DNA of 64,000 nt from Patiriisocius marinus (GTDB lineage Bacteria; Bacteroidota; Bacteroidia; Flavobacteriales; Flavobacteriaceae), in contig NZ_BKCG01000003.1 in assembly GCF_008974325.1 (NCBI RefSeq), positions 248,001-312,000 of the forward strand. The letters are read 5' to 3'. A model generated the notes under the pieces. The model saw nothing but the letters and a program-made list of their open reading frames with translations. It was not told the origin of the DNA and made no database searches. The position numbers were made by a program, and so were the translations under genes. Shown here piece after piece: positions 179 through 12,610 of this stretch; the stretch's first letter is position 1; every line of letters starts with the position of its first letter.

Positions 179-1438
179 TTAAACGAGAATTTGAAATAAA
201 TCTGGCTTGTCGTTTAAATACTCTCCATAGAAATTTTTAATTTTCATCCTCTCTATAAGTTCATTAATATCATTTGGATTTGGTAATTCTAGACCAACTA
301 CAGCAGGACCAGAATTCCTATTGTGATTTTTAGAATATTCAAAGTGTGTAATATCATCATTAGGACCTAATACTTCAGTTAAAAATTCGCGTAAAGCGCC
401 AGATCTCTGCGGAAATTTTACAATAAAATAATGTTTGTGTCCAGAATATAATAAAGCACGTTCTCTAATTTCTTCAGTACGGCTGATGTCATTATTAGAT
501 CCACTAACTAAACAAACAACATTTTTACCTTTTATCTCTGAAGAAAATTGGTCTAAAACAGCTGTGGTTAGTGCTCCTGCTGGTTCTACTACAATTGCAT
601 TTTTATTGTATAAATCTAAAATGGTTTGGCACACTTTTCCTTCAGGTACAGTAACCATTTCATCAAGGTTATTTTTACATATCTCAAAGTTTAAATCACC
701 TACTTTTTGGACAGAAGCGCCATCAATAAATTTATCTATATCTTTAATTTTAGTATTTATACCGATTTTCATTGAAGTAGACATCGAAGGTGCACCTTCA
801 GGCTCTACTCCTATAATTTTTGTGTTGGGAGAAATTTCTTTAAAAACACTAGAAACACCAGCGGCCAAACCACCACCGCCCACAGGTAAAAATAAATAAT
901 CTATAGGCTTTTTGGTAGTGTTTAAAATTTCTATGGCAATTGTTCCCTGCCCTTCAATAACTTTAATATCATCAAATGGATGTACAAATGACATCCCATT
1001 ATCATTGCAATACTGTATAGCCGAATCATAAGCATCATCATAAGTATCACCAATAATAACAAGTTCAACATAGATGCCACCAAACATTTTTACTTGTTCT
1101 ATTTTCTGATTTGATGTGGGTGTTGGCATAAATATTACCCCTTTTATTTTATTTTGTTTGCAAGAGTAGGCTACACCTTGTGCGTGGTTGCCTGCACTTG
1201 CACAAACTACACCTTGTTTTAAAGCTTCAGGTGTTAGTGATGCTATTTTATGGTAAGCGCCTCTTATTTTATAGGATCGTACTTCCTGTAAGTCTTCCCT
1301 TTTAAATTCAATATTGGCGTCGTATTTTTTAGAGAGATATTGATTTTTTTGTAATGGAGTTTCTAAAACAACATTACTCAATAGCGCCGCGGCTCTTTGA
1401 ACATTCCTTAAAGTAACATAATTTGTAGGGGTGTTCAT
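179..1438 (-). CDS. ilvA: Threonine dehydratase (biosynthetic)
   Basis: PLP enzyme that deaminates threonine to 2-oxobutanoate, the first committed step to isoleucine. The 419-residue length fits the shorter biosynthetic form with one C-terminal ACT-like regulatory segment (about residues 330-419). The PLP lysine is in SYKIRGAY (Lys57). The glycine-rich phosphate loop PVGGGGLAAG and the GSNND segment near residue 315 are present. It is the last gene of the ilv operon: its ATG overlaps the ilvC stop by one base (TAATG), which suggests translational coupling. No clear terminator follows before the window edge. Confidence 0.95.
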   Translation of the reverse strand: MNTPTNYVTLRNVQRAAALLSNVVLETPLQKNQYLSKKYDANIEFKREDLQEVRSYKIRGAYHKIASLTPEALKQGVVCASAGNHAQGVAYSCKQNKIKGVIFMPTPTSNQKIEQVKMFGGIYVELVIIGDTYDDAYDSAIQYCNDNGMSFVHPFDDIKVIEGQGTIAIEILNTTKKPIDYLFLPVGGGGLAAGVSSVFKEISPNTKIIGVEPEGAPSMSTSMKIGINTKIKDIDKFIDGASVQKVGDLNFEICKNNLDEMVTVPEGKVCQTILDLYNKNAIVVEPAGALTTAVLDQFSSEIKGKNVVCLVSGSNNDISRTEEIRERALLYSGHKHYFIVKFPQRSGALREFLTEVLGPNDDITHFEYSKNHNRNSGPAVVGLELPNPNDINELIERMKIKNFYGEYLNDKPDLFQILV

Positions 1439-2907
1439 TAATGTAAGTTTTGCATTGCTGTCATAGAACTTCTCAATGTAGCTCCTACTATTTCAATAGG
1501 ATGATTTCTTAAAGTTTTGTTTACCGCTATTAATTGTTGGTTGTCTATTTGATTAGTCGTTGAAAAATGTTCTCCGATAAGATCTGTTTCAATGTTTTTC
1601 ATAAAACTAGTTAGTAATGGTTTACATGCATGATCAAATAAATAGCAACCATATTCTGCGGTATCAGAAATCACATTATTCATTTCATATAGTTTTTTTC
1701 GAGCTATAGTATTGGCTATTAACGGGACTTCGTGAAGTGATTCATAGTAAGCGGATTCCGCTTTTATTCCTGAAGCTGTCATAGTTTCAAAGGCTAACTC
1801 TACCCCTGCTTTTAAAAAGGCTACTAATAGCGTACCATGGTCAAAAAACTCTTGTTCACTAATTTCAGCATCAGTTATTTTAGTTTGTTCAAAAGTTGTT
1901 TTTCCTGTTTCTTTTCTCCATTTCAGTAAATCTTTATCATTATTAGCCCAATCTTCCATCATTCCTTTTGAAAATTCCCCAGACATAATATCATCCATAT
2001 GTTTATTGAATAAAGGTGTCATAATTGTTTTTAGCTCTTCAGATAATTCAAAGGCTTTTATTTTTGCTGGATTAGTAAGTCTGTCCATCATATTTGTTAA
2101 GCCTCCATGTTTTAAAGCTTCGGTCAACGTTTCCCAACCGTATTGAATGAACTTAGCCGCATAAGCTCCTTCAATTCCCTTTTCTAACATTTTGTCAAAA
2201 CATAAAATGGAGGCTGTCTGTAACACACCACAAAGTATCGTTTGCTCTCCCATCAAATCTGATTTAACTTCGGCTACAAAAGAAGAATTTAGAACACCAG
2301 CCTTATCACCTCCAGTGGCAACTGCATAAGCTTTCGCTAACTCTAAACCTTTATTATGAGGATCGTTTTCTGGATGAACAGCAATTAAAGTAGGTACACC
2401 AAATCCTTTTTTATATTCTTCTCTTACTTCAGAACCAGGTGATTTTGGGGCCATCATTATTACAGTTATATCTTCACGTATTTTCATTCCTTCTTCTACA
2501 ATATTAAACCCGTGTGAATAAGATAAAGCTGCTCCTTTTTTCATTAATGGCATTACTTTGCTCACCACATCTGTATGTTGTTTATCTGGTGTGAGGTTGA
2601 TAACTAAATCTGCCGTAGGAATCATTTCATCATAATCCCCTACTTTAAACTTGTTTTCAGTTGCATTTTTAAAAGATTGTCTTTGCTCTTTAATAGCACC
2701 TGTTCTCAAGGTATAACAAACATCTAAACCAGAATCTCTCATATTTAAACCTTGGTTTAATCCTTGTGCGCCACAACCTATAATGACTATTTTTTTTTCT
2801 TTTAAAGCAGTTACTCCATTTTCAAATTCTGAAACATTCATAAAATCACATTTTCCTAATTGTGTCAATTGCTCTCTTAATGATAATGTATTGAAATAGT
2901 TTTTCAT
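1438..2907 (-). CDS. ilvC: Ketol-acid reductoisomerase
   Basis: NADPH- and Mg-dependent enzyme converting acetolactate or acetohydroxybutyrate to the dihydroxy acids of valine and isoleucine synthesis. At 489 residues it is the long (class II, enteric/plant-like) form. The Rossmann motif GCGAQG lies at residues 44-49. The two tandem C-terminal knotted domains expected of the long form fill the rest. It sits 7 bases after ilvN and overlaps ilvA by one base, inside the ilv operon. Confidence 0.96.
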
Positions 2908-2914
2908 GATATTT

Positions 2915-3451
2915 TTAATTTTTTACAAGTTCTTCTAACTGAAGTACTATTGAGGATAATGTTTTCATTGGTTTTGTAATTGCGACTCTACCTGATCTTA
3001 CAAATTCTAAAATTCCGAAAGGTTGTAATTCGTCAAATAATTGCTGTGTTTCTTCTTTGTGTCCCGTTTTTTCAATGACTGAAAATTCTGTTTCAACAGA
3101 TAGCACTCTTGCATTATGCGAACGAACTATTTTTTCTGCATTTCCGCCAGAAGCTAAAACACCAGTTTTTATTTTGTACAATGCAATTTCTTGATGCACT
3201 ATTTCTGAATCTGTATGGAAGACCGCTTTCACTACTTCAACTTGTTTTTCTAATTGGCCAACCACTTTTTTAACTTGGTTTTCTGTTTCTGTAATTACAA
3301 TAGTATATCGGTATATATTTTTAATTTCACTTTCAGAAGCGGCTATACTTTCTACATTAATTTTCCGTCTTGTGAAAATAATTGACACTCTATTGAGAAT
3401 TCCCACAACATCTTCAGTAAATACAGAAATTGTAAATCTTTTCTTATCCAT
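2915..3451 (-). CDS. ilvN: Acetolactate synthase small (regulatory) subunit
   Basis: Regulatory partner of the adjacent IlvB. Family members confer valine feedback inhibition. An N-terminal ACT domain covers about residues 4-78 (starting [18 protein letters not shown]), followed by the usual C-terminal ALS small-subunit domain. The 178-residue length is normal. It starts 5 bases after the ilvB stop, as in most ilvBN operons. Confidence 0.94.
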
Positions 3452-3456
3452 ACTTT

Positions 3457-5178
3457 TTATTTTAATCTTATTTCTGATACCGAAGCACCAGTTGCTATCA
3501 TTGGAAACACGTTGTTTTCTTTACCAACCATTACTTCAAGAAAGTAAGAGCCCTCGTAAGACAACATTTCTTTAATTGCTTCTTCTAAATGTTCTCTCTT
3601 ATTAATTTTTTTAACTTTAATCCCATAGCCTTTTACAATGGTTTGAAAATCTGGATTGACCATTGTTGTTGAAGCATATCTTTTATCAAAAAACAGTTCT
3701 TGCCATTGCCTTACCATTCCTAAAAATTCATTGTTCAATAACACAATTTTTACGGCTGTTTTAAATTGGAAAATAGTTCCTAATTCTTGTATGGTCATTT
3801 GAAAACCACCATCTCCTATGATACCAATAACTTGTGTATCAGGCATTCCCATTTTTGCTCCAATGGCTGCTGGCAAGCAAAAGCCCATAGTTCCCAAACC
3901 TCCAGAAGTTATTGATGATCGCGTTTGCTTAAATTTAGCATATCGACAAGCAATCATTTGATGTTGACCTACATCTGATACAATAATATTTTTTTGGTTT
4001 GAATACAGGTTTATTTTGTTAATCACTTCGCCCATAGACATTAATTTTGCTTTTGGATTTAGCTCTTTTTTAATTACTTCATTATATTCTTCTTTTTCTA
4101 ATTTTCTGAAATTTTCTAACCAGTCTTTATGTTCCTTTTTAATTACCAAATCGATTAAAGCTTTTAGACTTTCTTTGGCATTACCTAAGACTGCAACATC
4201 TGTTTTTACATTTTTATCTATTTCCGCAGGGTCAATTTCTATATGAATCACTTTTGCCTGTTTGGCATAGCGATTTAAATCGCCAGTAACTCGGTCATCA
4301 AAACGCATTCCAATCGCTATTAAGACATCACACTCATTGGTTAACTTATTAGGAGCATAATTGCCATGCATTCCTAACATTCCAACATTTAAGTAATGGT
4401 CAGAATCCAATGCAGACAAACCCATTATAGTCCAAGCAGAAGGTAATCCTGCCTTTTCAATAAATTCTTTAAATTCCTTTTCTGCCCGCGCTAAAAGAAC
4501 ACCTTGGCCAAAAAGAACAAATGGTTTTTTTGCTGAATTGATTAATGTAGCTGCTTCTTTTACCTTATCTAAATTTAATTTTGGAGTTGGAACATAACTT
4601 CTCATTCCTTTAAAAGGTTTATAGTCAAAATGTAGTGTTTCAAATTGCGCATCTTTAGTGATATCAATTAAAACAGGTCCTGGCCTTCCACTTTTAGCTA
4701 TAAAAAAAGCTTTTGCCAAAGCAAAAGGGATTTCTTCTGCTCTAGTTACTTGAAAATTCCATTTAGTAACTGGCATAGAAATACCTATAATATCTGTTTC
4801 TTGAAAAGCATCAGTACCCAATAAATGACTTGTAACTTGTCCAGTAATACAGACTAAAGGCGTAGAATCAATTTGTGCATCTGCAATTCCTGTAATTAAA
4901 TTTGTTGCACCTGGACCTGATGTTGCTAAACATACACCTACTTTTCCTGTTGCTCTCGCAAAACCTTGAGCTGCGTGCGTTGCACCTTGTTCGTGTCTAG
5001 TTAAAATGTGAGTTATTTTATCCTCGACATCATAAAGTGCATCATAAACCGGCATAATAGCACCACCAGGATAACCAAATATTAAATCTACTCCTTCTGC
5101 TATCAATGAATGTACAACAGCTTGAGAACCGGTCATTAATTGTTTTCTAATATTTGTTTTTATTGCTAAATTTTCCAT
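3457..5178 (-). CDS. ilvB: Acetolactate synthase large (catalytic) subunit
   Basis: Thiamine-diphosphate enzyme condensing pyruvate with pyruvate or 2-oxobutanoate. The 573 residues show the three-domain ThDP order: an N-terminal PYR domain with the catalytic glutamate in TRHEQGATHAAQG (about residue 63), a middle domain, and a C-terminal PP domain with the metal/ThDP motif GDGGFQM near residue 455. It lies between ilvD and ilvN with short gaps, so it is co-transcribed and subject to the leader attenuators upstream of ilvE. Confidence 0.96.
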   Translation of the reverse strand: MENLAIKTNIRKQLMTGSQAVVHSLIAEGVDLIFGYPGGAIMPVYDALYDVEDKITHILTRHEQGATHAAQGFARATGKVGVCLATSGPGATNLITGIADAQIDSTPLVCITGQVTSHLLGTDAFQETDIIGISMPVTKWNFQVTRAEEIPFALAKAFFIAKSGRPGPVLIDITKDAQFETLHFDYKPFKGMRSYVPTPKLNLDKVKEAATLINSAKKPFVLFGQGVLLARAEKEFKEFIEKAGLPSAWTIMGLSALDSDHYLNVGMLGMHGNYAPNKLTNECDVLIAIGMRFDDRVTGDLNRYAKQAKVIHIEIDPAEIDKNVKTDVAVLGNAKESLKALIDLVIKKEHKDWLENFRKLEKEEYNEVIKKELNPKAKLMSMGEVINKINLYSNQKNIIVSDVGQHQMIACRYAKFKQTRSSITSGGLGTMGFCLPAAIGAKMGMPDTQVIGIIGDGGFQMTIQELGTIFQFKTAVKIVLLNNEFLGMVRQWQELFFDKRYASTTMVNPDFQTIVKGYGIKVKKINKREHLEEAIKEMLSYEGSYFLEVMVGKENNVFPMIATGASVSEIRLK

Positions 5179-5200: not shown

Positions 5201-6883
5201 TTAAAATTCGTCTGTCACACAACCTTCAGATGCACAAGAAACAGTTTTAGCATATTTATATAACACGCCTTTTTTATGCTTTAATTCTGGTTGTTTCCAG
5301 TTAGCCTTTCGTTTTAAAAGTTCTTCTTCTGAAATATTAAAGTCAATTGTATTGTTAATAGCATCAATGGTTATTAAATCACCATTTTCTATAAGAGCTA
5401 TTGGACCTCCTACTTGTGCTTCTGGTGAAATGTGTCCTACTACAAAACCGTGAGTTCCACCAGAAAACCTTCCATCAGTTATTAAAGCAACATCATTTCC
5501 TAAACCAGCACCAATAATTGCAGCGGTGGGTTTAAGCATTTCGGGCATTCCTGGGCCTCCTTTAGGACCTTCATACCTTATGACTACTACATCTCCTTTA
5601 ATTACTTTCCCATCTCTAATACCATCATTTGCATCATATTCAGAATTAAAAACCTTTGCAGTTCCTGTAAATTTCAATCCTTCCTTTCCTGTAATTTTTG
5701 CCACAGCACCTTTTGGTGATAAATTCCCTTTTAGTATTCTTAAGTGTCCTGTTTCTTTTATTGGGTTATTAAGGGGTTTTATTATTTCTTGACCTACTTT
5801 TAAATCTGGAACATTTCCGAGGTTATCAGCTAACGTTTTTCCTGTTACGGTTAAACAATCACCGTGAAGCAAACCATTTTTTAATAAATATTTTAAAACA
5901 GCAGGTATGCCACCTATGTCGTGAACGTCTTCCATTAAATATTGACCACTAGGCTTTAAGTCGGCTAAAAATGGTGTGGAATCTGCAATTCTTTGAAAGT
6001 CATCTAAAGTAAAATCAACTTCTGCTGTTCTTGCAATAGCCAAAAAGTGTAAAATGGCATTGGTAGATCCTCCCATTATTGTTACTAATCTAATAGCGTT
6101 TTCTAATGCTTTTTTGGTAACAATATCTTTTGGTTTGATATCTTTTTCGAGTAATAATCGTACAGCTTCACCTGCTGTTATACTTTCTATTTTTTTCTCT
6201 TTCCCCAATGCTGGGTTTGATGAATTGTAGGGAAGTGACATTCCTAATGCTTCTATGGCAGATGCCATTGTATTTGCAGTGTACATTCCTCCACAAGCAC
6301 CTGCTCCTGGACAGGCTTTTTCTATTATATTTTGATATTCTTCATCATCAATTTTACCAGCTACTTTTTGTCCCCAAGCTTCAAAGGCAGATACTACATC
6401 GAGCTTTTTATCTTTATGACAACCAGAGGCAATTGTACCTCCATAAACTAAAACGCCAGGTCTATTTGTTCTAAGCATTGCCATTAATGCTCCAGGCATA
6501 TTTTTGTCACAACCAACTACAGTTACCAAAGCATCATAAGACATTCCTTCTACTACAGTTTCCATTGAATCTGCTATCACGTCTCGTGATGGTAAAGAAT
6601 ATCTCATTCCTGGTGTACCCATAGAAATTCCGTCACTTACACCAATGGTATTATAAATTAGTCCTACTAAATTTGCATTTTTTGTTCCTTGTTTTACATC
6701 AAGTGCTAAATTGTTTAAATGCATATTGCAAGGATTACCTTCGTAGCCTGTACTAGCGATACCCACAAATGGTTTTTTAAAATCTTCTTTTGTTAAACCA
6801 ATAGCATGTAACATTGCTTTTGCTGCTGGTTGAGAATCGTCTTGTGTTACACGTTTACTATATTTATTTAATTCCATTTTCAA
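5201..6883 (-). CDS. ilvD: Dihydroxy-acid dehydratase
   Basis: Iron-sulfur enzyme making 2-oxoisovalerate and 2-oxo-3-methylvalerate. The cluster-ligand cysteines sit in GCDKNMPGA and CPGAGACGG, and the conserved [14 protein letters not shown] block lies near residue 475. The 560-residue length is normal. It starts one base after ilvE ends, in the operon ilvE-D-B-N-C-A. Confidence 0.96.
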
Positions 6884-6884
6884 T

Positions 6885-7751
6885 TTATTTTATTTGAACG
6901 CATTTTTGATATGCTGTAGCTAATTGATAACCAATACTTTTTTTCCAAGGCAAATTGAATCTGTGATTGTCAAGACTACCAATTGCAGCCACTTCAGCGG
7001 CTGTTCCTGTAAAAAAAGCACCATCTGCGTTGTATACATCTTCTGGTGTAAAAAACTTTTCTATTACTTCAAAACCTAATTCATTAGCTAACTCAAATAT
7101 TGTTTGACGTGTTATTCCTGAAAGAATATTTCCTAATGGAGCCGTAAATAATTTACCTTCTCTCTCATAGAAGAAGTTCGCTCCTGGTCCTTCAGCGACA
7201 TTTTCGTTCATATCTAAAAGTAAAGCTTCATCAAATCCATTTTGTTTGGCTTCTGTTGTTGCTACTATTGAATTGGTATAATGACCGCATACTTTAGCTT
7301 CTACAAAACAAGATTTTGGATTGGGTCTTTGAAAAGAAGATGTCATCAATTTGAGTTGTTTATCGCCTAAATATCTTCCCCATTTCCAAGCAGAAAGCAG
7401 TACGTGAACTTCTTCTGAAGGCTGAAGTGCCATATTTTCGCCTACATAAACCAAAGGACGGATATAAGCGTCTTCTAAGGAATTCTTTTCAAGTAATCGG
7501 TAACTTAAATCAATCAACTCTTCCACTGTATAATTTAATTTAATATGCATCTTTTCAGCTGAATAATGTAGACGTTCAAAGTGTTCTTTAGCTTTATAAA
7601 TACTTGTACCATTTTCTGTTTTATAAGATCTTATTCCTTCAAAAACACCCACTCCATAGTGAAGTGTTTGGCTATATAAATTGATTTTACCGTTTTGGGC
7701 TTTTACCCACTGGCCATCTAAAAATATTATTGTGTCGCTATTGTAATACAT
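6885..7751 (-). CDS. ilvE: Branched-chain amino acid aminotransferase
   Basis: PLP class IV aminotransferase performing the last step to Ile, Val and Leu. The catalytic lysine is in [11 protein letters not shown] (Lys153). The [19 protein letters not shown] segment near residues 25-43 and the phosphate-binding SGITRQTI segment near residue 215 are typical. At 288 residues it is slightly short for the family. It is the first structural gene of the operon and lies directly downstream of the second attenuator hairpin, so all six genes are controlled by the leader. Confidence 0.94.
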
Positions 7752-7775: not shown

Positions 7776-7813
7776 AAAAAAAAAAGCCCTTCTCAGTAAT
7801 TGAGAAGGGCTTT
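7776..7813 (-). terminator. Attenuator hairpin 2 of the ilv leader
   Basis: Read on the minus strand, a perfect 13-bp stem AAAGCCCTTCTCA / TGAGAAGGGCTTT with a 5-base loop is followed by an unbroken T run. It lies 18 bases downstream of the leader-2 stop codon and 25 bases upstream of the ilvE start, so transcription must cross it to reach the operon. The 5' arm can pair instead with TGAGAGAG at 7842-7835, inside the last leader codons. That gives a mutually exclusive antiterminator. Confidence 0.88.
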
Positions 7814-7831
7814 CATATTATATCAATACAA

Positions 7832-7936
7832 TTACTCTCTCACCTTATGGGGTAAAATAATAATGCTAATAATAATAATAATATTGATTAATAGGTTTGT
7901 CATCGCTATGATTGTATTTAAGCTGTTTGTTTTCAT
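7832..7936 (-). CDS. ilv leader peptide 2 (Ile-rich, 34 aa)
   Basis: A 34-codon open frame starting MKTNSLNTIIAM. 16 of its 34 residues are branched-chain (11 Ile, 4 Leu, 1 Val). They include five consecutive ATT codons, one AGC, then three more ATT and a TTA. It ends 18 bases before a strong terminator in front of ilvE. This is the architecture of a transcription-attenuation leader peptide: ribosome stalling at Ile codons would expose the antiterminator arm. It is too short to be called by ordinary gene finders. The function is inferred from composition and position, not from homology. Confidence 0.85.
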   Translation of the reverse strand: MKTNSLNTIIAMTNLLINIIIIISIIILPHKVRE

Positions 7937-7958
7937 TGATATTGATTCTAAAATAAAT

Positions 7959-7986
7959 CAAAAAAAAAACCATCCCAATGGATGGC
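7959..7986 (-). terminator. Attenuator hairpin 1 of the ilv leader
   Basis: On the minus strand, stem CCATCC / GGATGG with loop ATTG (7985-7970), followed by about ten T residues. It lies between leader peptide 1 and leader peptide 2. The 5' arm can instead pair with GGATG at 8015-8011, just after the leader-1 stop. That alternative helix extends through CU/AG and UAAAU/AUUUA with two single mismatches. This is a textbook 2:3 versus 3:4 choice. Confidence 0.78.
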
Positions 7987-8015
7987 TTTAAATATATTTT
8001 AATTTATAGGCATCC

Positions 8016-8078
8016 TTAACTTTCGTGACTAATAATCACGATTTCGATAATTGATGCTATAATACTGTATTTCTTCAT
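8016..8078 (-). CDS. ilv leader peptide 1 (Ile-rich, 20 aa)
   Basis: A 20-codon open frame beginning MKKYSIIASII, with seven Ile and one Val. Codons 13-19 contain the hairpin TCGTGA / TCACGA (8041-8023), which would be structure 1:2 of a classical attenuator. The stop is followed at once by GGATG, the arm that can pair with the terminator stem. The nearest -7 box (8093-8086) lies only 7 bases before the ATG, so the transcript may be nearly leaderless. The function is inferred from architecture. Confidence 0.78.
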   Translation of the reverse strand: MKKYSIIASIIEIVIISHES

Positions 8079-8085
8079 TGTTAAA

Positions 8086-8130
8086 CAAATGTACATTTTA
8101 TTTTTAACAAAGCTTATTTTTTGTTAAAAA
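8086..8130 (-). promoter_or_regulatory. ilv operon promoter with an 11-bp inverted repeat
   Basis: The minus strand has TACATTTG at 8093-8086, an exact match to the Bacteroidota -7 consensus TAnnTTTG. Just upstream is a perfect inverted repeat, TTTTTAACAAA (8101-8111) and its complement (8120-8130), with an 8-base spacer. The repeat covers the -33 region and looks like an operator. A shorter palindrome TTGTTAAACAA lies across 8077-8087. Which regulator binds is unknown. Confidence 0.6.
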
Positions 8131-8538: not shown

Positions 8539-10146
8539 ATGGCAATCAATTTACTCGATTTATTTAAACAACAATTAACTGATGGCGTACTTGAAAAAGT
8601 AACCGGATTAATTGGAGGTGGAGATAATTCAGGCTCAATACAAAAAGGATTAATGGCAGCAGCACCTGCATTATTAGGTGGAATTATGGATAAAGCATCA
8701 TCTAAAGAAGGTGCAGCATCAATATTTAATATGCTTGGAAATGGAAGTGAATTAGCAGGTTTAGCTAATTTAAGTACTAACCCAGCAGAATCTGAAGGTT
8801 TACTTACTAAAGGGCAAGATTTAGTAACAATGGCTTTAGGAGATAAAGCGACTGGTGTTATTGATATGGTAAGTTCATTAGCTGGAATAGATAAAGACAA
8901 GTCTTCATCATTATTGAGTGTTGCTGGTTCTATGATTAGCGGAGTATTAGGAAAGCAAAAAGCAGAAGGTTTAGATTTAGGTTCATTTGTAGGCCTATTA
9001 TCAAATCAAGGAAGTTTTTTAGACAAATTTGCTCCTGCAGGTTTAACCTCTTTATTAGGTCTAGCTTCCTTTTCAGGTATTTCAAATAAATTAGGAGATT
9101 TAGCAAGTGGAGCTTTAGGTTTTGCTGGTAATACAGGAAAAGCTGCATTAGACGGTGCAGGAAAAGTTGCTGGCGCTGCTGCCGGAGCTGTTAGTGGTGC
9201 TGGTAAAGCTGCTTATGATGGCGCAGGGAAAGCTGGAGCTGCTGCTGCTGGTGCTGTAAGTGGAGCTGGAAAAGCCGCTTATGACGGAGCAGGAAAAGTA
9301 GTTGGTGGTGCAGCTGGATTAGCTGGTGATGCTGGTAAAGTTGCAGGTGCCGCAACTGGAGCTGCAACGGGAGCTGCAAAAGCAGGTGGTTCATTATTGA
9401 AAAAAATATTGCCTTGGGCTATCGGAATTTTAGCTTTATTGTTTCTATTCTTTTTCCTAAAAGGATGTGATAGTGATAAAAGCATATTAGATAATGTAAC
9501 AGATGCTGCTAATGAAACTACAGGAACAGTAACTAACGCTGGAAACTCTGTTGTTGATGCTGCAGGAAATGCAGTTGACTCAACAGTTGACGCTGCAGGA
9601 AACGCTGTGGATGCTGCAGGAAATGCAATTACAACTGTTACTGGTGGTATTAAAGATGCTTCTGGGAACTTTGTAAATGCTTTTGGTGACGTAATTGGAA
9701 AGTTCTTTAGTTCAGATTTACCTAACGGTACTAAATTAAATATCCCTGAAGGAGGATTTGAAGATAACTTTTTAAGCTATATCAAAGATGGAAAGTTCGA
9801 AGCTGGAAAATACTATGCTTTTGATAGATTGTATTTCAATACTGGTTCTTCTTCATTGAGTAATGAATCCATTAATCAAATTGAAAACGTTGTTGCTATT
9901 ATGAAAGCTTATCCAGATGTGAAAGTGCTTTTTAGAGGTCACACTGACAACACTGGATCTGTTGAAGGAAACAACAAATTATCAGCTAGTAGAGCTTTAG
10001 CAGTAAAAGCTAATTTAGTAGAAAAAGGTATTGATGCTTCAAGAATAGGAACAAAAGGAATGGGTTCTGTTGAACCTATTGCAGATAATGCAACTCCAGA
10101 AGGAAGAGCAAAAAATAGAAGAATTGATGTTTCTATTGTAAAATAA
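8539..10146 (+). CDS. DUF937 / OmpA-like peptidoglycan-binding envelope protein
   Basis: 535 residues. Residues 1-150 resemble DUF937 (NLLDLFKQQLTDGVLEKV and AAAPALLGGIMDKAS). Residues 190-285 are Ala/Gly-rich, with repeats of SGAGKAAYDGAGK. One membrane helix spans about 290-307 (LPWAIGILALLFLFFFLKG). A second repeat zone of DAAGNAVD units covers 335-365. A C-terminal OmpA domain (about 430-533) has the peptidoglycan-binding Asp in GHTDNTGS and Arg in KNRRIDV. It probably tethers the membrane to the cell wall. There is no cleavable signal peptide, so an inner-membrane anchor with a periplasmic OmpA domain is the likely topology. The role of DUF937 is unknown. Confidence 0.85.
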   Translation: MAINLLDLFKQQLTDGVLEKVTGLIGGGDNSGSIQKGLMAAAPALLGGIMDKASSKEGAASIFNMLGNGSELAGLANLSTNPAESEGLLTKGQDLVTMALGDKATGVIDMVSSLAGIDKDKSSSLLSVAGSMISGVLGKQKAEGLDLGSFVGLLSNQGSFLDKFAPAGLTSLLGLASFSGISNKLGDLASGALGFAGNTGKAALDGAGKVAGAAAGAVSGAGKAAYDGAGKAGAAAAGAVSGAGKAAYDGAGKVVGGAAGLAGDAGKVAGAATGAATGAAKAGGSLLKKILPWAIGILALLFLFFFLKGCDSDKSILDNVTDAANETTGTVTNAGNSVVDAAGNAVDSTVDAAGNAVDAAGNAITTVTGGIKDASGNFVNAFGDVIGKFFSSDLPNGTKLNIPEGGFEDNFLSYIKDGKFEAGKYYAFDRLYFNTGSSSLSNESINQIENVVAIMKAYPDVKVLFRGHTDNTGSVEGNNKLSASRALAVKANLVEKGIDASRIGTKGMGSVEPIADNATPEGRAKNRRIDVSIVK

Positions 10147-11142: not shown

Positions 11143-11156
11143 CCGCCCTTAATAAA

Positions 11157-11220
11157 TTATCAAGAATCTCAAAAAAGGAGATAGCAACCTGCATTAACAA
11201 GCAAGGTGCTAAATAGATAA
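11157..11220 (+). ncRNA. SAM-I/SAM-IV-like riboswitch aptamer (compact)
   Basis: The core signature of the SAM-I/IV clan is visible: AGCAACC at 11183-11189 and AAGGTGCTAAAT at 11203-11214. These are the conserved J2/3-P3 and P3-J3/4 parts. P1 is TTATC (11157-11161) with GATAA (11216-11220). P2 is a short simple hairpin ATCTC / GAGAT (11166-11182). P3 is CCTGC / GCAAGG. Unlike ordinary SAM-I there is no kink-turn-bearing long P2 and no P4 inside P1. A small hairpin CCAA / TTGG follows P1. Ligand assignment to SAM is inferred from the core and from the transporter downstream. Confidence 0.72.
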
Positions 11221-11296
11221 GCCAATTACTTGGAAAAAATGTTAACTCATACTTCTAGTTATTTGCTGCTATCAACTTTTTTAGAAAAAAAAGAAT

Positions 11297-12610
11297 ATGG
11301 CAAATATTAAAAAGAGTACTTCAAAATTTTCAGCACTAATTCCCCTTTTTGTATTTGTTTTTACATTTTTAGGTGTTGGTATAAATCAAAATGATTTTTA
11401 CGCCTTACCAGCTCCTATTGCTGTTATAACCGGAATTATAGTTGCTTTTCTTTTATTTAAACAATCATTAAATTCTAAAATAAATACTCTATTAAAGGGA
11501 TGTGGGGATGATAAAATACTAACCATGTGCTTAATCTATTTGCTTGCGGGGGCATTTGCTGCCATAACAAATGCAACTGGAAGTGTGGATACTATTGTAA
11601 ATCTTGGCTTAGATTACATCGCTATAGAATATATATACGTTGGTATATTTATAATTGCAGGTTTTTTATCAGTTTCAACAGGAACTTCTGTTGGTGCAAT
11701 TGTAGCTTTAACTCCTATTGTAGTGGGATTTGCAGATAAGAGCAACGTAGAGTTAGCAATTCTATGTGGAGCTTTATTAGGAGGAAGTATGTTTGGTGAT
11801 AACTTATCGGTGATTTCAGATACTACTATTGCAGCAACACAATCGTTGGGAACAAAAATGAGCGATAAGTTTAAAGAAAATGTCAAGATAGTTTTACCCG
11901 CTGCTTTACTTACTATTATTATTTTAATTTTTCAGGGTTTAGGATTAGAAGCAACCGAAACTGAAACTGTAGGATATGATTATTCTGTTGTAAAAATAAT
12001 TCCATATGTTTTGGTAATTATCCTTTCTATTATTGGTTTGAATGTGTTTGCTACTTTATTATTAGGTGTAATTTCAGCAGGTATTTTAGGTATTCTTTAT
12101 GGTGATTTCACTCTTATTGAATCTACTAAAATTGCTTACACAGGTTTTACCAATATGACAGAAATATTTCTATTATCATTACTTACAGGGGGGTTAGCAG
12201 CTTTAGTGGAGCGGAATGGCGGAATCGAATTTCTATTAATTAATATTAAAAAACTGATTAGTAATAAAACAACTGCTCAACTAGGTATTGGTGCATTAGT
12301 AAGCACTATAAATATGGCAATAGCAAATAATACCGTATCTATAATTATAGCTGGACCAATTGCTAAAAAAATAAACGATGAGTATGCGCTAGACAATAAA
12401 AAAACAGCTTCTATTTTAGATATTTTCGCTTGTATTTTTCAAGGGCTTCTCCCTTACGGAGCTCAAGTTTTAATGATTTTAAGTTTTACAAAAGGTAAAA
12501 TTGATTATGTTGATTTGGTGTCTAATAGCTGGTATTTACTATTGTTATTTATATACACAATTTTGTTTATTAATTTTAATTCTTTCAAATTTAGTCGTCT
12601 TAAACATTAG
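11297..12610 (+). CDS. NhaC-family transporter, probable methionine uptake (MetT-like)
   Basis: 437 residues and about 11 membrane helices, with NhaC-superfamily segments (SVSTGTSVGAIVALTPIVVGFA; GGSMFGDNLSVISDTTIAAT). The family contains Na+/H+ antiporters. Members controlled by SAM riboswitches have been proposed as methionine transporters (MetT). The SAM-I/IV-like RNA in its leader supports that reading here. Na+/H+ exchange remains the alternative. Confidence 0.8.
   Translation: MANIKKSTSKFSALIPLFVFVFTFLGVGINQNDFYALPAPIAVITGIIVAFLLFKQSLNSKINTLLKGCGDDKILTMCLIYLLAGAFAAITNATGSVDTIVNLGLDYIAIEYIYVGIFIIAGFLSVSTGTSVGAIVALTPIVVGFADKSNVELAILCGALLGGSMFGDNLSVISDTTIAATQSLGTKMSDKFKENVKIVLPAALLTIIILIFQGLGLEATETETVGYDYSVVKIIPYVLVIILSIIGLNVFATLLLGVISAGILGILYGDFTLIESTKIAYTGFTNMTEIFLLSLLTGGLAALVERNGGIEFLLINIKKLISNKTTAQLGIGALVSTINMAIANNTVSIIIAGPIAKKINDEYALDNKKTASILDIFACIFQGLLPYGAQVLMILSFTKGKIDYVDLVSNSWYLLLLFIYTILFINFNSFKFSRLKH

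What the first reader, a model, noticed from the sequence alone, without database searches (positions are those of the whole stretch)
7776..8093. Tandem transcription attenuator with two Ile-rich leader peptides before the ilv operon
Two complete attenuator units stand in series on the minus strand. The first has a 20-aa leader (7 Ile, 1 Val), a 1:2 hairpin in its codons and a terminator. The second has a 34-aa leader (11 Ile, 4 Leu, 1 Val) and a stronger terminator. Each has a computable alternative antiterminator: GGATG/CATCC for unit 1 and TGAGAG/TTCTCA for unit 2. Serial attenuators would multiply repression and could read different amino acids (unit 1 almost only Ile; unit 2 Ile plus Leu). 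Leader attenuation is known; I know of no description of a double unit for ilv in this phylum.
Basis: partly seen in the sequence, partly recalled or inferred. Interest (0 to 1): 0.8.

Follow-up and report, generated by a model that had tools for sequence, protein, structure and literature searches.

The report
Tandem isoleucine attenuators before ilv operon
Two short isoleucine-rich leader genes, each followed by its own transcription stop signal, stand in a row before the isoleucine/valine operon, and related bacteria carry one, two or even three such units, which suggests that isoleucine starvation must be sensed more than once before the operon is fully switched on.

Summary
On the minus strand two complete leader-peptide attenuators lie in series between a sigma-A-type promoter box and ilvE of an ilvE-D-B-N-C-A operon: leader 8078-8016 (20 aa, 7 Ile) with terminator 7989-7966, and leader 7936-7832 (34 aa, 11 Ile) with terminator 7814-7782. 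The layout is conserved: 22 tandem and 42 single leaders in 112 ilv operon starts; adjacent covariance-model hits in 33 of 349 family genomes, none in reverse order, three of them triple. The 1:2 and 3:4 pairings covary across relatives; 2:3 is well paired but covaries little. In 22 of 22 tandem leaders the antiterminators pair better with their own terminators than with the neighbour's. No promoter motif lies between units (strict form, 0 of 22). Tandem arrays also occur outside the family, once with Phe codons before a pheA-like gene. That the two units read different amino acids is not supported: both are Ile/Val-rich. In the window itself unit 2 is the weak point: its antiterminator is no better than shuffles. 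No RNA data were available. Attenuation is known; serial leader-peptide attenuators reading the same amino acid look like a new variant.

The parts
8086..8093 (-). TACATTTG, sigma-A-type -7 box (consensus TAnnTTTG), 7 nt before the first leader ATG
   Evidence: consensus and placement from PMC9723704 passages
8016..8078 (-). leader peptide 1, MKKYSIIASIIEIVIISHES
   Evidence: conserved in L004 and L006; R1 hit 7.8e-10 (this unit was in R1's training set)
8010..8057 (-). 1:2 structure of unit 1: GCATC 8057-8053 with GGATGC 8015-8010, enclosing the hairpin 8042-8023
   Evidence: family 1:2 counts
8011..8015 (-). segment 2 of unit 1 (GGATG), antiterminator strand pairing with CATCC 7984-7980
7966..7989 (-). 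terminator 1 hairpin (U tract follows)
7832..7936 (-). leader peptide 2, 34 aa, 11 Ile
   Evidence: R2 hit 8.5e-8 and R1 hit 6.8e-7, in neither training set
7829..7844 (-). segment 2 of unit 2 (GGTGAGAGAGTAATTG), weak antiterminator strand
7782..7814 (-). terminator 2 hairpin (U tract follows)
6885..7751 (-). ilvE, first operon gene
5201..6883 (-). ilvD
3457..5178 (-). ilvB (acetolactate synthase large subunit)
2915..3451 (-). ilvN (small subunit)
1438..2907 (-). ilvC
179..1438 (-). ilvA

Best explanation
Each unit is a ribosome-mediated transcription attenuator, and the two act in series on one transcript from one promoter. In each, a ribosome that runs through the short frame covers segment 2, so the terminator (3:4) forms and transcription ends. 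A ribosome waiting at Ile codons for charged tRNA-Ile sits on segment 1, frees segment 2 to pair with segment 3, and the terminator cannot form. RNA polymerase must pass both terminators, so Ile starvation has to be signalled at unit 1 and again at unit 2; this should lower the leak and sharpen the response (product of two read-through probabilities). Shown here: the sequence elements, their conservation, the alternative pairings across relatives, the orthogonality of the two units, and the lack of a promoter motif between them. Inferred: translation of the frames, termination, stalling, the multiplicative output, and that Ile (with some Val) is the signal.
For: Complete ilv operon downstream. 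Ile-rich frame plus terminator in 64 of 112 ilv operon starts, 22 of them tandem. Model hits adjacent in 33 of 349 family genomes, 0 in the order B-A, three triple. 1:2 plus 3:4 of type B: 45 two-sided cells, 0 of 500 shuffles reach it; 1:2 of type A: 9 two-sided cells, 0 of 500. Segment 2 pairs better with its own segment 3 than with the mean of the others in 83 of 86 units; own beats cross pairing in 22 of 22 tandem leaders. The stall simulation opens 2:3 at some codon in 55 of 55 A and 31 of 31 B units and closes it at the stop codon in 52 and 18. Strict TAnnTTTG between units in 0 of 22, and 20 of 22 gaps are 39 nt or shorter. Models of this architecture also find Asn, Thr/Ile and Phe leaders before gatA-, thrA- and pheA-like genes.
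Against: No transcript, termination or starvation data. The antiterminator of the window's unit 2 is no better than shuffles and its 1:2 fold is weak (z -1.3). 2:3 shows no two-sided change in type B and 2 cells in type A (146 of 500 shuffles reach it), so it rests on pairing percentage and cognate tests. In the simulation ribosome-free RNA blocks 2:3 in only 27 of 55 A and 20 of 31 B units, and not in the window's unit 1; the stop codon fails to close it in 13 of 31 B units. 48 of 112 ilv starts had no detected leader. A strict -7 box was found before the first unit in only 14 of 64 leaders, a relaxed one at 5-12 nt in 27 of 64.
Confidence: 0.82

Rival explanations
1. Two signals: unit 1 senses Ile and unit 2 Ile plus Leu, so that the operon integrates two amino acids.
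For: The window's unit 2 has 4 Leu codons, unit 1 none; mgtCBR shows that tandem attenuators can read different signals (PMC3641672, passages).
Against: Mean Leu 1.2 in unit 1 and 0.7 in unit 2 over 22 tandem leaders; the Leu-Leu pair is missing from the unit 2 of L004 and L006 and lies outside the predicted stall window.
Confidence: 0.07
2. Only unit 1 is a working switch in this genome; unit 2 is a decayed copy whose strong terminator acts as a constant damper.
For: Unit 2's antiterminator is no better than shuffles, its leader folds weakly (z -1.3) and its terminator is strong (-21.5 kcal/mol).
Against: Its frame, stop-proximal TGAGA and terminator are kept in L004 and G311b; it is hit by R2 at 8.5e-8 although in no training set; the simulation opens 2:3 on its Ile run and blocks it without a ribosome.
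Confidence: 0.15
3. The frames encode small hydrophobic peptides with a function of their own (membrane peptide or toxin-like), and the terminators merely end their transcripts.
For: Ile/Val-rich peptides of about 20 aa look like transmembrane segments (my reading).
Against: Position before amino-acid operons; 1:2 and 3:4 covariation; the same layout carries hydrophilic Asn runs before gatA-like genes.
Confidence: 0.03

Closest known systems
Leader-peptide attenuators of the enterobacterial ilvGMEDA, thr and trp operons (recalled)
   Same: Short frame rich in the regulated amino acid, segments 1-4 with alternative pairings, intrinsic terminator, biosynthetic operon downstream.
   Different: One unit there (recalled), two or three in series here; Bacteroidota-type promoter with the box close to the ATG; no Rfam leader family reaches its threshold here.
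Tandem attenuators of the Salmonella mgtCBR leader (PMC3641672, passages read)
   Same: Two short frames in one leader, both affecting transcription into the operon.
   Different: Two different signals there (ATP and proline), called a singular example by the authors, who contrast it with a metE leader that has two terminators; here both units carry Ile/Val codons and each has its own terminator.
Leader-peptide attenuation proposed upstream of amino-acid operons in Flavobacterium psychrophilum (PMC9723704, passages read)
   Same: Family and type of mechanism.
   Different: The passages seen name no tandem units; the terms ilv and isoleucine do not occur in the main text; supplements were not read.
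Leader-like short ORFs in long 5' UTRs of Bacteroides thetaiotaomicron (PMC7366714, passages read)
   Same: Phylum; several short ORFs in one 5' UTR of a hypothetical gene.
   Different: The example named is not an amino-acid operon and no attenuator structure is described in the passages.
ermB with two leader peptides (PMC8274638, search listing and start of abstract only)
   Same: Two leader peptides before one gene.
   Different: Translational attenuation in response to erythromycin.
Tandem riboswitches (B. clausii metE, as mentioned in PMC3641672) and tandem T-boxes (recalled)
   Same: Serial RNA sensors before one operon.
   Different: Those bind metabolite or tRNA directly; here a translating ribosome is the sensor.

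Membership tests
Ribosome-mediated (leader-peptide) transcription attenuator | short frame with a run of codons for the regulated amino acid | tested here: met
   7 and 11 Ile codons; leaders in 64 of 112 ilv starts
Ribosome-mediated (leader-peptide) transcription attenuator | intrinsic terminator between frame and operon | tested here: met
   3:4 two-sided changes
Ribosome-mediated (leader-peptide) transcription attenuator | 1:2 pairing alternative to 2:3 | tested here: met
   family; window: clear for unit 1 (z -2.9), weak for unit 2 (z -1.3)
Ribosome-mediated (leader-peptide) transcription attenuator | 2:3 antiterminator | tested here: inconclusive
   family: cognate pairing in 83 of 86 units, 98.4% and 88.1% paired cells but little covariation; window: unit 1 modest, unit 2 not above shuffles
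Ribosome-mediated (leader-peptide) transcription attenuator | read-through responds to charging of the tRNA | not testable with these tools
   needs RNA experiments
mgtCBR-type tandem attenuator | the two units respond to different signals | tested here: not met
   codon content only: same Ile/Val make-up of both units; signals themselves not tested
Rfam amino-acid leader families | score at or above the gathering threshold | tested here: not met
   best amino-acid leader Phe_leader 29.4 bits against 55, Thr_leader 27 against 55; no gathering hit there

The most novel reading that the evidence does not exclude
Serial arrays of two or three mutually orthogonal leader-peptide attenuators reading the same amino acid are a general regulatory architecture of Bacteroidota (ilv in several families, Phe before a pheA-like gene). 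They work as a multi-step starvation gate with lower leak and steeper response than one attenuator, grow by unit duplication (near-copies as units 2 and 3 of the triple leaders) and decay by unit loss.
Probability: 0.5. Interest if true: 0.7.

Novelty: new variant of a known kind. Interest (0 to 1): 0.56.

Why it matters
Textbook attenuation is one switch per operon, and a leader with tandem attenuators was called a singular example (PMC3641672). A conserved series of same-signal switches, with order, orthogonality and copy number visible in many genomes, makes it directly testable whether stacking attenuators multiplies repression and steepens the response, and nature supplies variants with none, one, two or three units. 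It also shows how amino-acid operons may be controlled in a phylum whose regulation is little studied.

Tried and rejected
Different amino acids for the two units: compared in 22 tandem leaders and in the closest relatives; not supported. Second promoter between units: strict TAnnTTTG 0 of 22, relaxed box 1 of 22; the two leaders with long gaps (G309 78 nt, L019 89 nt) leave room for one. Terminator 1 as the end of an upstream gene: the gene 8539-10146 runs the other way. Rfam leader families: nothing at threshold. A TGAACATCA element seen by eye in leaderless ilv starts turned out almost as frequent with leaders (13 of 48 against 15 of 64); only the pair with GAATTTA is commoner without (8 of 48 against 2 of 64).

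Rows dropped before counts. The 112 ilv starts are 102 ilvD places in 101 family genomes (from the places listed, where 275 of 349 genomes matched; the list is cut and favours close IlvD relatives), 3 loci and 7 of the 15 loci; left out were L005 (same leader as L004), L006 (same as G311b) and L010-L012, L014-L016 (Pedobacter and a Sphingobacteriaceae MAG). Of 88 units, 2 of class x (G346, first of G105) were dropped; G154 and G209 were classed A by hand. Adjacency used typed lists: 104 R1 places down to 1.2e-5, leaving out 14 listed ones (ten of about 112 nt, mostly of the gatA type as far as fetched, G188 second place, G145, G186, and the window's own unit 2), and 69 R2 places down to 2.4e-5, leaving out 8 (overlapping an R1 unit, on the opposite strand, or elsewhere). 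By hand none of the 22 would add or reverse a pair. At E up to 0.01 the models hit 184 and 185 of 349 genomes, many weakly. Alignments A1 and A2 hold 34 of 55 A and 27 of 31 B units (near-identical or badly aligning ones left out). Of 31 genomes with R1 hits in the class sample, 16 places were fetched; the R2 class hits (40 of 295) were not followed.

Full report
What is there. The window's minus strand carries an ilvE-ilvD-ilvB-ilvN-ilvC-ilvA operon (ORFs; families). Between a sigma-A-type -7 box TACATTTG (8093-8086) and the ilvE ATG (7751) stand two short frames, each followed by an intrinsic terminator: 8078-8016 with 7989-7966, and 7936-7832 with 7814-7782. From the first hairpin to the second ATG are 29 nt, U tract included. 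The hairpins fold at -12.4 and -21.5 kcal/mol, 0 of 200 shuffles as good; the whole leader has z -5.9. The upstream gene is divergent, so terminator 1 ends nothing else.

Anatomy of a unit. GGATG also pairs with CATCC of the terminator. In relatives of type A the corresponding stretches read ATATCATTTC, GGAATGGTAT, GCCTTCC and GGAAGGC, so in the window's lineage segments 2, 3 and 4 have changed together and segment 1 still pairs with segment 2. Type B units read GAGTTGATACAG around the stop codon and have a CTGTATC/GATACAG terminator. The window's unit 2 is not a typical B: R2 and R1 both hit it (8.5e-8 and 6.8e-7 in the whole genome), and it was in neither training set. Unit 1 was in R1's.

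Tests of structure. In type B (27 sequences) 1:2 plus 3:4 has 95.4% paired cells and 45 two-sided cells; 0 of 500 shuffles reach either. In type A (34 sequences) 1:2 has 86.1% paired and 9 two-sided cells, 0 of 500. The 2:3 pairing is 98.4% paired in B and 88.1% in A, against at most 45.2% and 76.2% for slid partners, but has no two-sided change in B and 2 cells in A, which 146 of 500 shuffles reach. Support for 2:3 of another kind: segment 2 pairs better with its own segment 3 than with the mean of all others in 83 of 86 units, of the other class in 82, of the same class in 69; 65 of 86 beat 95% of shuffles of segment 2. In 22 of 22 tandem leaders the summed own pairings beat the cross pairings (means -10.6 and -13.2 against -7.6 and -4.6 kcal/mol), so the two switches are insulated from each other; the second terminator is the stronger in 20 of 22. 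For the window, unit 1's antiterminator is modest (6% of shuffles as good), unit 2's is not better than shuffles (60%), and unit 2's leader alone folds weakly (z -1.3). This is the weakest point of the case for this genome.

Stall simulation. The RNA downstream of a ribosome at each codon was folded, with RNA polymerase just past segment 3. The antiterminator opens at some codon in 55 of 55 A and 31 of 31 B units and is closed at the stop codon in 52 and 18; without a ribosome 2:3 is blocked in 27 and 20, and not in the window's unit 1. Ile makes up 37% and 35% of codons inside the predicted window and 6% and 8% outside; since the window covers most of the frame, this contrast is only suggestive. 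For the window's unit 2 (simulated from its internal ATG) the control codons are chiefly the Ile run; the Leu-Leu pair is outside.

Distribution. The detector found leaders in 64 of 112 ilv starts, 22 tandem and 42 single; 48 had none. Adjacent R1-R2 hits within 300 nt on one strand mark 33 of 349 family genomes, 0 in the order B-A; 67 further genomes have R1 only, 32 R2 only and one both apart. Three genomes (G125, G293, G337) have A-B-B; the DNA shows three frames before the ilv genes, units 2 and 3 being near copies. The closest relatives of the operon, Winogradskyella sp. KYW1333 (L004) and Ulvibacter antarcticus (L006), have the same two units, with IlvE 83% and 82% identical. In the class sample R1 hit 31 of 295 genomes. 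Of 16 such places fetched, 5 are tandem: before ilvE in L160, L161 and L164, at a contig end in L152, and Phe-rich in L154 before a prephenate-dehydratase-like and a DAHP-synthase-like gene, both best matches but below the curated cut-offs. L161 is in the window's own family; the other four lie in three other families.

One promoter. The -7 box ends 7 nt before the first ATG; with the -12 to -5 placement given for F. psychrophilum (PMC9723704) the transcript would begin about 3 nt before the ATG (inference). A strict box lies near the first unit in 14 of 64 leaders, a relaxed one at 5-12 nt in 27 of 64, against 1 of 22 second units and 8 of 320 random points. So unit 1 seems close to leaderless, and unit 2 to be reached by read-through of terminator 1. 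G309 and L019, with gaps of 78 and 89 nt, could differ.

Reading. Two attenuators with the same signal in series give a product of two read-through probabilities. Shown: elements, conservation, alternative and orthogonal pairings, no promoter motif between. Inferred: translation, stalling, termination, multiplication. The two-signal rival fails on composition (unit means 6.5/2.0/1.2 and 6.5/1.5/0.7 for Ile/Val/Leu). The rival that unit 2 is only a damper in this genome stays open because its antiterminator is weak.

Known and new. Leader-peptide attenuation is established and was proposed for amino-acid operons of F. psychrophilum (PMC9723704, passages). Tandem attenuators are described for Salmonella mgtCBR, with different signals (PMC3641672, passages). 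Ten searches of the open-licence library listed no tandem same-signal leader-peptide attenuator of an amino-acid operon; subscription literature and supplements were not seen. I file it as a new variant of a known kind.

Noticed in passing
L135, L136, L137, L138, L139, L151 (about 300-430 in gene orientation): Asn-run leader peptides (such as MKNNNNNNNFNNPKF) with a GCCTTCC-type terminator before gatA-gatB-like genes in six of six ~112-nt R1 hits fetched: an apparent Asn-sensing attenuator of tRNA amidation. GatA is the best NCBIfam match for the two proteins scanned, below its cut-off. No match in the window's own genome, which by itself shows nothing.
   Followed up: partly
L154:300-660: Two Phe-rich leaders in series (MQKQLNNYFFFFNAMR, MKRQTSTVFFYFFFIQP), each with a terminator, before a prephenate-dehydratase-like and a DAHP-synthase-like gene.
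   Followed up: partly
L132, L133, L134: Three attenuators in series before ilv genes; units 2 and 3 are near copies of each other.
   Followed up: partly
L155, L158, L165, L168: Thr or Thr/Ile leaders with terminators before a bifunctional aspartate kinase/homoserine dehydrogenase (L155 and L168 by NCBIfam, L158 and L165 by the start of the protein).
   Followed up: no
L163, about 180-400 in gene orientation (minus strand): Leader with Met-Met and Cys-Cys codons and a terminator before a NirA/sulfite-reductase-like gene (below cut-off): a possible Met/Cys attenuator.
   Followed up: no
L140, L141, L143: Separate units that look like the ilv small subunit and ilvA (by the start of the protein only) with their own Ile leaders in two genomes; the first is again tandem.
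   Followed up: no
420 nt upstream of the ilv start in 8 of 48 genomes without a detected leader: TGAACATCA followed within 120 nt by GAATTTA, against 2 of 64 starts with leaders: possibly another promoter or regulator site.
   Followed up: partly
L004, L005, L023, L062: Same upstream 500 nt of the ilv operon in a Winogradskyella isolate and a MAG labelled Polaribacter; G311 has two ilvD genes, one with the tandem leader (93% to the window's IlvD) and one without a detected leader: signs of operon transfer or mis-binning.
   Followed up: no
window 11152-11249 +: SAM-I/IV riboswitch (Rfam RF01725, 62.5 bits) before the membrane-protein-like ORF 11297-12610.
   Followed up: no
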